In this document: positions 17,153 through 40,518 of the stretch, piece after piece
How positions within the stretch are numbered: position 1 is the stretch's first letter
Layout: every line of letters begins with the position of its first letter
Assembly: GCF_000245335.1 (NCBI RefSeq)
Contig: NZ_JH600304.1
Coordinates: forward strand, 62,001 to 126,000
DNA: 64,000 bases
Source: Bacillus mojavensis RO-H-1 = KCTC 3706
Lineage (GTDB): Bacteria; Bacillota; Bacilli; Bacillales; Bacillaceae
Direction: 5' to 3'
The notes under the pieces: model-generated
Database searches by the model: none
Seen by the model: only the letters and a program-made list of their open reading frames with translations
Told to the model about the DNA's origin: nothing
Made by a program: the position numbers and the translations under genes

Positions 17153-17187
17153 AAAAAAGCGGGGGATTCAATCCCCCGCTTTTTTAT
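17152..17187. terminator. Bidirectional terminator between yqfT and nfo
   Basis: AGCGGGGGATT and AATCCCCCGCT form an 11-bp stem with A and T runs outside; it overlaps the 3' end of nfo. Confidence 0.93.
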
Positions 17188-18076
17188 TGCTGTAAAATCT
17201 TTTCGAGTAATGTGTTGTCAAATTGCTTTTCTTTCAGCATTTGAATCTCAAAACGGTACGGCGGTTTTTTGTTCTTTTTATCTTCACCGACATACGGCGT
17301 TTCAAGGATTTTTGGAATGTCTTTTAACTGCTCATGATGAACGACATATTGCAATGCGTCAAACCCGATTTCCCCGAAGCCAATATTTTCATGACGGTCT
17401 TTTCTCGCGCCTTTAATATTTTTGCTGTCATTGATATGGAGCACTTTGATTCTGTCAATACCAACAATTTTATCGAACTCATTCAGCACTCCGTCAAAAT
17501 CTTCGACAATATTGTAGCCGGCATCATGTGTATGGCATGTATCAAAGCATACAGACAAATGCTCATTGTGTGTAACGCCATCAATAATTTGCGCAAGCTC
17601 TTCAAAGCTTCTGCCGCATTCAGACCCTTTGCCAGCCATTGTTTCTAATGCAATCTGCACATTTTGATTCGGATCAATGACTTCATTTAAGCCTTCAATA
17701 ATTTTCTTAATGCCTTCCTCGGCTCCCGCGCCAACATGAGCACCCGGGTGAAGGACGATTTGCTTCGCGCCGATAGCAGCTGTCCGCTCAATTTCAGAGC
17801 GGAGAAAATCAACACCAAGCTCAAAAGTAGCCGGATTGACCGTATTGCCAATATTAATAATATAAGGCGCGTGTACGATAATCTCGTCGATGCCGTTTTC
17901 CTGCATGTGAGCGCGGCCGGCTTCTATATTTAAGTCTTCAATTTTTTTCGGCGCGTATTTTGCGGCGCGCCTGTATAAATCATAAACGTGTTCGCCCCGT
18001 AAGAGACTGCTTCCTGACTCGCAGCTAGAAGCATATGTTTTCCGCTCATAGAGACGTGTGAACCTATTCTCAACAA
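17184..18076 (-). pseudogene. nfo: Endonuclease IV Nfo (YqfS), frameshifted
   Basis: AP endonuclease that cuts DNA at abasic sites, important in spore DNA repair. The protein starts at TTG 18076 (LRIGSHVSMSGKHM, with GTAGGGG upstream). It reads normally through APQNTRRKK and then shifts into LKT-stop, while the rest (IEDLNIEAGRAHMQENG to the end) continues in another frame. The break is a run of seven T on the plus strand (17942-17948) where eight would restore the frame. The total of 893 bp is one short of 894, the length for 297 residues. Catalytic-domain residues such as LHPGAH, ETMAGKG and CFDTCHTHDAGYN are intact downstream. Translation could restart at the ATG at 17906 but would lack the first zinc-ligand strand. 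Sequencing error is a likely cause. Confidence 0.93.
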
Positions 18077-18085
18077 CCGGTTCCC

Positions 18086-38358: not shown

Positions 38359-38363
38359 CAGGA

Positions 38364-39323
38364 TTAATTTTGCTTATCGTATGCTTCAATAATTTTCGCA
38401 ACAAGCGGATGTCTGACCACGTCTGTCTGGTCCAGTTCAATCACAGAAATGCCGTCGATTTCTTTCAGCATCTCTCTCGCTACTGCAAGTCCCGATTTGA
38501 CGCCTTTCGGCAGATCAATTTGGCTAACGTCACCTGTAATGATCATTTTAGAGCCAAAACCCAGTCTCGTCAAAAACATTTTCATTTGGGCAGGCGTAGT
38601 GTTCTGTGCTTCATCAAGTATAACATAGGCATCATCAAGCGTCCGGCCTCTCATATAAGCGAGCGGAGCGATTTCAATAACTCCTCTTTCCAGCAGACGT
38701 TCTGTATGATCTGTTCCAAGCACATCATGAAGAGCGTCATACAGCGGGCGCAAATAAGGATCTACTTTCTCTTTCAGGTCACCTGGTAAAAAACCGAGGC
38801 TTTCACCGGCTTCTACGGCAGGTCTTGTTAAAATGATTTTTTTAATATGTCCGTTTTTCAATGCGTGGACTGCTTTTACGACAGCAAGATACGTTTTTCC
38901 GGTTCCAGCCGGGCCAATACCGAATACAAGATCATTTCGTTTCATGGCTGCTACGTATTCCCGCTGTCCCATGGTTTTCACACGGATCGATTTGCCTTTT
39001 GCGTTTTTTGTAATTTCTTCTTCATACATGCTTTCAAAATATTCAAGCTCATTCTTTTTTGCCATCTTGATGGCGTAAATCACATCACGTTCAGAGATCT
39101 CTATCCCCTTGCGAATTAATGCGAGAAGTGATCCCAGCAGCCTGTCGGCAATCTGAAACGATTCTTCACCGCCTGAAATATAAATCGTTTCGCCTCGCGT
39201 AATGATATTTACATCCAGATCTTTCTCCATCAGTGCCAAAAAAGAATCTTGATTCCCGAACAGTGAAAGCGCCTCGTCCGGGCTTTTCAATTTTTGATTA
39301 ATCGCAAGTAAATGTTCTGTCAT
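38364..39323 (-). CDS. phoH: PhoH-like ATPase
   Basis: P-loop NTPase of the PhoH/YbeZ family, commonly linked with YbeY and possibly an RNA helicase or ribosome-related ATPase. An N-terminal KH-like region (about 15-90) precedes Walker A GPAGTGKTYLA (about 137-147) and Walker B AYVILDEAQNTTP (about 230-242). Length is 319 residues. It overlaps yqfD by 4 bp. The neighbouring ybeY and era support a role in rRNA processing; this is inference from context. Confidence 0.92.
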   Translation of the reverse strand: MTEHLLAINQKLKSPDEALSLFGNQDSFLALMEKDLDVNIITRGETIYISGGEESFQIADRLLGSLLALIRKGIEISERDVIYAIKMAKKNELEYFESMYEEEITKNAKGKSIRVKTMGQREYVAAMKRNDLVFGIGPAGTGKTYLAVVKAVHALKNGHIKKIILTRPAVEAGESLGFLPGDLKEKVDPYLRPLYDALHDVLGTDHTERLLERGVIEIAPLAYMRGRTLDDAYVILDEAQNTTPAQMKMFLTRLGFGSKMIITGDVSQIDLPKGVKSGLAVAREMLKEIDGISVIELDQTDVVRHPLVAKIIEAYDKQN

Positions 39324-40518
39324 TCTTCAGTCTCCCTGACAATAGGTGTGGTTTGAACGATATCTTCTATAACTTGGTAGAGAATAATCAACTTTACTTT
39401 ACCATTCTCGACTGTCTGGTGCAAAACTTTTTCACTTTTCACCTCGCCGTCCTCGCCTATTTTATTCTCTACATCCCGTTTACCCATTTTGATTCCTTCT
39501 TGAACTGCTTCTTCTTCGGTATATTTTCGCAAAGCCTCTTCACTTTCTCTCGTTTGCTCTTTGATATAAGAAACAGGGAGCTCCAAACCGAGAAAATGAA
39601 GCGAATGCTTCTCTTGTTCTGTTTTTGGATGTTTTAATTCCTCTTTTTTAAACGTCATTCCCCAGATCGGGAAAGCCCATGAGCCAAAAGAAAGCTTGTG
39701 CTTTGTCCTTACTTTGCCCGTATAGACGTTAAATAATGTTTCAAGTGGCACTGTTACTTCAGATCTGTACCAGGTCTCACCGTAAATTTCAGCTTTAGAG
39801 GCGACTTCCTGCTGCTCATCTTCGCTTCCGATTAAGCCGGAGACAAGCATTTGTCCCTTTTCCACATGATCATGAATTGCGGCCATGGGCTGTCCTTTCT
39901 GCACAAACATTCTTGTAATGGTTGCTTTCTTTTTGGCGACAATGTGGCGCGGACTGGCATACTTTTCTTTTTCCGGCTCATTTTTCTCCACAACTTTCAT
40001 ACGGATGGTCGTGCCTTTCAAATCGACTCCGACCCAAGTGATATTGTCTATTCCGTTGGTTAACGATTTTTGTATTTTTTCGGGAGACTGCATTAAAAAC
40101 TGCAATCGCCCTTTTTGGACGCCTATTCCCTTCAGATGCTGCATCATTTGGTGCTCCGTTTCAGGCTTTGCGCCAGTCACTTCAATTTTCCACACCATAT
40201 TGGAGAGCAAAAATAAAAAGGATAAAAAAAAAGCGCAAAACCAATGGTAAATCCTAAATTCAGCTTGGATTTCAGCAATAAGAACGGGAATCCTTTTCGA
40301 TTGATAAAACGGGCTTTACAGTCAAATTCTCTCCTAACACGCCGAAAGGCATGTACATCCTGAAGCTGTATATATAACAAGACGGCTTCTTTCTTTTTTT
40401 TCAGATGAAAGATCGGAATCCCTCTTCTTGTGCATTCATTAAGGAGCCGTTCAATGCCTCGTCCCGTCACTTCAAGCTGGACCTTACCCTCAAAAAAAGA
40501 CAGCCATTTATTTTTCAC
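39320..40518 (-). pseudogene. yqfD: Sporulation protein YqfD, frameshifted
   Basis: YqfD is a membrane protein of about 398 residues conserved in endospore formers, found beside yqfC; its molecular role is not settled. ATG at 40518 opens 113 residues ending TIGFALFFYPFYFCSPIWCGKLK-stop. The rest (from LLSNMVWKIEVTGAKPE to TPIVRETEE, 296 residues from an internal start) continues in another frame. The break is nine A on the plus strand (40224-40232), inside the membrane segment; ten or seven would restore FALFFLSFLFLLSNMVW. Nine-base A/T tracts can also slip during transcription, so some full-length product is possible even if the sequence is right. Confidence 0.88.

What the first reader, a model, noticed from the sequence alone, without database searches (positions are those of the whole stretch)
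17184..40518. Five conserved genes split by small indels in A/T tracts
nfo (A7 where A8 fits), yqxD (6 where 5 fits), glyS (6 where 5 fits), yqzL (two extra bases in an A-rich stretch) and yqfD (9 where 10 or 7 fits) are each open and conserved on both sides of a single break. In glyS and nfo the total length is off by exactly one base from the family length. Neutral decay would hit unconserved genes with varied lesions, whereas these are homopolymer length changes, typical of long-read or pyrosequencing-type errors. A mutator or real phase-variation background is the less likely alternative.
Basis: partly seen in the sequence, partly recalled or inferred. Interest (0 to 1): 0.75.

Follow-up and report, generated by a model that had tools for sequence, protein, structure and literature searches.

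The report
Single-base errors splitting conserved Bacillus genes
Several vital genes in this Bacillus genome look broken by one-base slips, most likely because the deposited sequence is wrong at those points rather than because the bacterium lost the genes; one of the breaks is also found in a related species and deserves a separate look.

Summary
All five breaks exist. In nfo, yqxD, glyS and yqzL the lesion is private to this genome: the relatives covering each site agree in length against it. The fifth, yqfD, differs: the closest held genome, G015, is split at the same T-tract, while 42 of 44 genomes of the genus have one intact frame. A sample of about a tenth of the genome shows more such lesions: 12 of 333 reference ORFs (yqxD and glyS among them) broken mid-gene here but not in G015, plus 4 of 38 in a further 40 kb, including dnaI and dnaB, found once in the genome. 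A living cell should not lack DnaB or glycyl-tRNA synthetase, so sequence or assembly error is the best reading. mutS and mutL are open, and sequence downstream of breaks is still constrained. Ordinary artefact; yqfD stays open.

The parts
17184..18076 (-). nfo (deoxyribonuclease IV) split near its 5' end at the T7 tract around 17942-17948
   Evidence: C-terminal piece named
27244..27844 (-). yqxD (YaiI/YqxD family) split around 27613-27618
   Evidence: piece matched below the curated cut-off
29604..31644 (-). glyS (glycyl-tRNA synthetase beta) split around 29961-29966 into 567-aa and 142-aa frames; the only PF02092 match in the genome
39320..40518 (-). yqfD (sporulation protein) split at the T9 tract 40224-40232; G015 is split at the same place
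56852..56893 (-). three one-base changes within about 40 bases that together keep the frame of the gene 56769-57119; not seen in the four relatives compared there

Best explanation
The breaks in nfo, yqxD, glyS and yqzL, and similar ones elsewhere in this genome, are one-base mistakes in the deposited sequence (base-calling or consensus errors) that fall on conserved genes whether or not the cell can lose them. The organism very probably carries intact genes at these places. Shown: the lesions, that they are private among the relatives compared, that glyS and the dnaI-dnaB region were found once in the genome, that downstream sequence is constrained, and that mutS and mutL are open. Inferred: that the DNA in the cell differs from the deposited letters. 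yqfD is most likely the same kind of error arising twice at a long T-tract, with a real frame change there as the alternative.
For: Private lesions with agreeing relatives. 12 of 333 ORFs (10 of them outside the window's five genes) broken mid-gene here and not in G015 or the reference G012; nfo in addition; and 4 of 38 ORFs in a further 40 kb. Genes hit include glyS (one match) and dnaI and dnaB, split here into 192+134 and 243+234 aa frames (names from the intact G012 copies), with one match for that region in the genome (40 of 51 candidates scored); and genes whose intact G012 copies match elongation factor P, SigM and a TrkH-family transporter above cut-off, and PrsA below its cut-off. B. 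subtilis dnaB is called essential in the abstract of PMC2727948 (listing); essentiality of glyS, dnaI and prsA is recalled. Pooled downstream dN/dS of 19 own-broken ORFs is 0.126, against 0.079 in intact ORFs: no sign of old loss. mutS 859 aa and mutL 632 aa open. Private substitutions at codon positions 1+2: 132 here, 136 in G015.
Against: The excess in count is not significant: 9 vs 5 (G015) vs 5 (G020) of 206, Fisher p 0.42 and 0.42; 8 vs 4 vs 2 with a stricter cut, p 0.38 and 0.11; own vs G015 12 vs 9 of 333, p 0.66. Broken genes are not more conserved than average (p 0.34). No systematic run-length bias. Private substitutions in total are 13% more here than in G015 (656 vs 578), nearly all at third positions. 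Downstream dN/dS is somewhat above that of intact genes. No raw reads were available. dnaB and dnaI were compared with G012 only. yqfD is split in G015 too.
Confidence: 0.85

Rival explanations
1. The breaks are real and tolerated because RNA polymerase or ribosome slippage at the repeats restores enough full-length protein.
For: Bypass of frame-shifting indels in repeats of 3-8 bases, short ones included, is reported in the abstract of PMC3812077. Downstream parts remain constrained. yqfD is split at a T9 tract here and a T7 tract in G015.
Against: 16 of 26 tallied lesions are in runs of 3 or fewer bases, where slippage is expected to be weak (inference); several essential genes would all have to rely on it, while the relatives' genes are intact.
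Confidence: 0.05
2. A mutator lineage (mismatch-repair loss) has accumulated real frameshifts.
For: Lesions are mostly one base and their rate per run rises with run length; private substitutions are 13% more than in G015.
Against: mutS and mutL are open; no excess at codon positions 1 and 2; single-copy genes thought essential are hit.
Confidence: 0.03
3. Ordinary pseudogene decay or phase variation.
For: G015 has 9 private breaks of 333 ORFs, and 8 of its 17 tallied lesions are in runs of 7 or more, so some natural breakage at long runs in this clade is plausible; the yqfD tract is long.
Against: Housekeeping genes are hit; downstream dN/dS stays near 0.13; the four private window lesions are in runs of 7 or fewer.
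Confidence: 0.07

Closest known systems
Gene-fragmenting indel errors in draft assemblies (as in Kastor, PMC12007338, passages seen)
   Same: One-base indels that split conserved genes and mimic pseudogenes; those passages give 1101 frameshifted genes in a long-read draft and 25 in a short-read assembly.
   Different: Here about 4% of sampled ORFs are hit and the lesions are not confined to long homopolymers; the sequencing platform is unknown.
Frame-shifting indel bypass at repeats (PMC3812077, abstract seen)
   Same: Indels at repeats with the downstream frame still constrained.
   Different: Many lesions here lie in runs of 1-3 bases and some in genes thought essential; bypass itself was not testable here.

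Membership tests
Sequencing/assembly indel error | Lesions private to one assembly, relatives agreeing | tested here: met
   for nfo, yqxD, glyS, yqzL; not met for yqfD
Sequencing/assembly indel error | Hits genes the cell cannot lose, with no second copy | tested here: met
   glyS one match; dnaI-dnaB region one match (40 of 51 candidates scored) and both genes split; essentiality of dnaB from the PMC2727948 abstract, of the others recalled
Sequencing/assembly indel error | More broken genes than in comparable genomes | tested here: inconclusive
   9 vs 5 vs 5, or 8 vs 4 vs 2 with the stricter cut, of 206; p 0.42 and 0.42, 0.38 and 0.11
Sequencing/assembly indel error | Raw reads disagree with the consensus | not testable with these tools
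   no reads held
Homopolymer (pyrosequencing-type) error | Lesions concentrated in long runs, run lengths biased | tested here: inconclusive
   rate per run rises with run length, but 16 of 26 tallied lesions are in runs of 3 or fewer and run-length distributions look normal
Mismatch-repair mutator | mutS or mutL lost, marked substitution excess | tested here: not met
   both open; 656 vs 578 private substitutions, no excess at codon positions 1 and 2
Pseudogene decay | Relaxed constraint downstream of the break | tested here: not met
   pooled dN/dS 0.126 over 19 ORFs against 0.079 in intact ORFs
Phase-variable or slippage-expressed gene (yqfD) | Long tract at the break, break shared within a clade, downstream constrained, switching or slippage observed | tested here: inconclusive
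   tract, sharing and constraint seen; switching or slippage not testable here

The most novel reading that the evidence does not exclude
In the clade of this genome and G015, the sporulation gene yqfD has acquired a pure poly-T tract that really breaks the frame, and full-length YqfD is made only by slippage, or its loss switches on and off, giving a length-variable control of sporulation.
Probability: 0.08. Interest if true: 0.5.

Novelty: not a real feature. Interest (0 to 1): 0.15.

Why it matters
If the errors are as widespread as the sample suggests (roughly 4% of ORFs, an extrapolation), gene-presence and pseudogene calls for this species' held genome are unreliable although its listed completeness is 100. 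The yqfD tract is worth checking because the gene is needed for sporulation in B. subtilis (passages of PMC4703394 and PMC3533761).

Tried and rejected
Mutator: disfavoured. Systematic over- or under-calling of homopolymers: no signal in run-length distributions or in own-versus-G015 run comparisons. Low-quality patches with extra substitutions: own-only substitutions within 40 bases of nfo, yqxD, glyS, yqzL, yqfD and the 56.9-kb site were 0, 0, 2, 5, 3 and 3 against a mean of 1.08 in 150 random places (9 of the 150 had 4 or more), so suggestive only at yqzL. Higher conservation of broken genes: not significant. Count excess: not significant. Old shared loss of yqfD in the own-G015 clade: not supported, with 9 nonsynonymous and 17 synonymous differences over 297 codons of the C-part, dN/dS about 0.14. 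Naming the strain: not achieved; the named records L002-L005 are about 88-90% identical, and a literature look at B. vallismortis, a guess from recall (listing; PMC9670946 whole text; PMC4866836 passages), gave no link. A search for a paper with all five of my essential-gene terms found none; of the 10 papers listed of 19 I read none.

Rows dropped: reference ORFs are mechanical open frames of G012, not annotated genes. Of 549 frames of 80 aa or more, 354 could be compared in both own and G015 (coverage 90% or more, identity 80% or more), and 333 of these are at least 300 bases. The screen counts an ORF only if more than 5% of it is off frame, a lesion lies between 5% and 95% of its length and its longest open stretch is under 97%. 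The 38 ORFs are 80 aa or more and were not compared with G015; 7 of the 38 carried non-triplet indels, and I count the 4 whose longest open stretch is 0.77 or less. The run-length tally leaves out ORFs with more than two non-triplet indels and is polarised only by which of own and G015 has the open frame; one search leaves out ORFs under 140 aa and has no outgroup either. yqzL is too short for the ORF screens, and nfo escaped the screen because its shifted frame is open by chance (one search shows it).

Full report
What is there. The window is G000:C28:62001-126000, part of a 3.96-Mb, 29-contig genome that by its relatives belongs to the Bacillus subtilis group (inference). Its nearest held relative, G015, is 97% identical over a conserved 7.8-kb stretch and 95-97% over most of the window; G023 (its contig length, 744,296 bases, equals that of the B. 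inaquosorum KCTC 13429 record), G012 and G020 are about 85-90% identical. The strain was not named by any search.

The five sites. Alignment confirms a non-triplet length difference at every site. nfo, yqxD and glyS each differ from G015 by exactly one base over the gene, and the outgroups side with G015. yqzL has two separate one-base changes 13 bases apart in very short runs. NCBIfam finds the separate pieces of glyS and of yqfD on consecutive parts of one model. A sixth place, 56852-56893, has three one-base changes that together keep the frame and that none of the four relatives compared there has.

yqfD is not like the others. Both the window genome and G015 have yqfD in two frames at the same T-tract, while the other 42 of 44 genomes of the genus searched have one frame of 400-440 aa. 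The tract lengths of the two differ. The downstream part is still constrained between the two genomes (9 nonsynonymous, 17 synonymous differences in 297 codons), which speaks against an old shared loss. What remains is an error at the same long tract in two assemblies, a recent loss in each, or a frame break that is bypassed.

Beyond the window. I aligned 423 kb of this genome to G015 and tested mechanical open frames of G012. Of 333 frames of at least 300 bases compared in both, 12 are broken mid-gene only in this genome (yqxD and glyS among them), 9 only in G015 and 8 in both. nfo is not among the 12 because its shifted frame happens to be open; one search shows it. Of the 206 frames that could also be compared in the one-contig genome G020, private breaks number 9 (own), 5 (G015) and 5 (G020), or 8, 4 and 2 with a stricter cut. 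These differences are not significant (own against G015 and G020: p 0.42 and 0.42; strict 0.38 and 0.11). G020 was 94% identical to the reference, while own and G015 are about 96% identical to each other, so G020's private count may span more evolutionary time; I did not normalise for that. In a further 40 kb, 4 of 38 ORFs are broken mid-gene against G012, with G015 not compared there: DnaI and DnaB (names from G012's intact copies), an aminopeptidase-like protein and a small regulator. In this genome dnaI is in frames of 192 and 134 aa and dnaB in 243 and 234 aa, and a DNA search with that region found one match (40 of 51 candidates scored).

Why error is the best reading. Loss of glyS, dnaB or dnaI should not be compatible with growth (dnaB: abstract of PMC2727948 in the listing; glyS, dnaI and also prsA recalled), and glyS too has a single match in the genome. 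The parts downstream of breaks in 19 own-broken ORFs show dN/dS 0.126 against 0.079 for intact ORFs and 0.094 for 14 G015-broken ones; long-dead genes would approach 1. Substitutions private to this genome number 656 against 578 in G015, with 132 against 136 at codon positions 1 and 2: a slight surplus at third positions, no sign of scattered substitution error or of a strong mutator. mutS and mutL are open.

Of 26 tallied lesions, 16 are in runs of three or fewer bases and 3 in runs of seven or more; in G015 the figures are 4 and 8 of 17 (Fisher p 0.027 and 0.014). The rate per run still rises steeply with length in this genome (8 lesions in 191,092 single bases, 2 in 41 runs of eight or more), so runs are preferred but not required. 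Run-length distributions are alike in G000, G015, G012, G020 and G023. The platform cannot be told from sequence. Of G015's 9 private breaks, 8 involve A/T runs of 7-9; they may be errors of the pyrosequencing kind or natural slippage.

Verdict. yqfD stays open.

Noticed in passing
window 40224-40232 and L120: The poly-T tract in yqfD splits the gene in this genome and in G015 alone of 44 genomes of the genus, with different tract lengths.
   Followed up: partly
window 56852-56893: Three one-base changes close together that keep the frame of a conserved gene and that the four relatives compared lack.
   Followed up: partly
L115-L177 (G015): G015 has 9 private breaks in 333 ORFs, 8 of them at A/T runs of 7-9, in genes that by recall include spoIIIAF and an undecaprenyl-diphosphatase gene.
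   Followed up: partly
window about 9540-12525: A stretch with no alignment of 500 bases or more to G023 or G020, only 11209-11733 in G012, and only partly aligned to G015: a variable island.
   Followed up: no
L104, L142-L147, L154, L155 (C3): Own mid-gene breaks look uneven along the genome: four in the first 23 kb of C3 and several in C10 and C28, one in the rest of the C3 sample. Coverage differences are one possible cause; not tested.
   Followed up: no
window about 12984-12988: A four-base difference from all four relatives compared, just upstream of the gene at 13022-14149.
   Followed up: no
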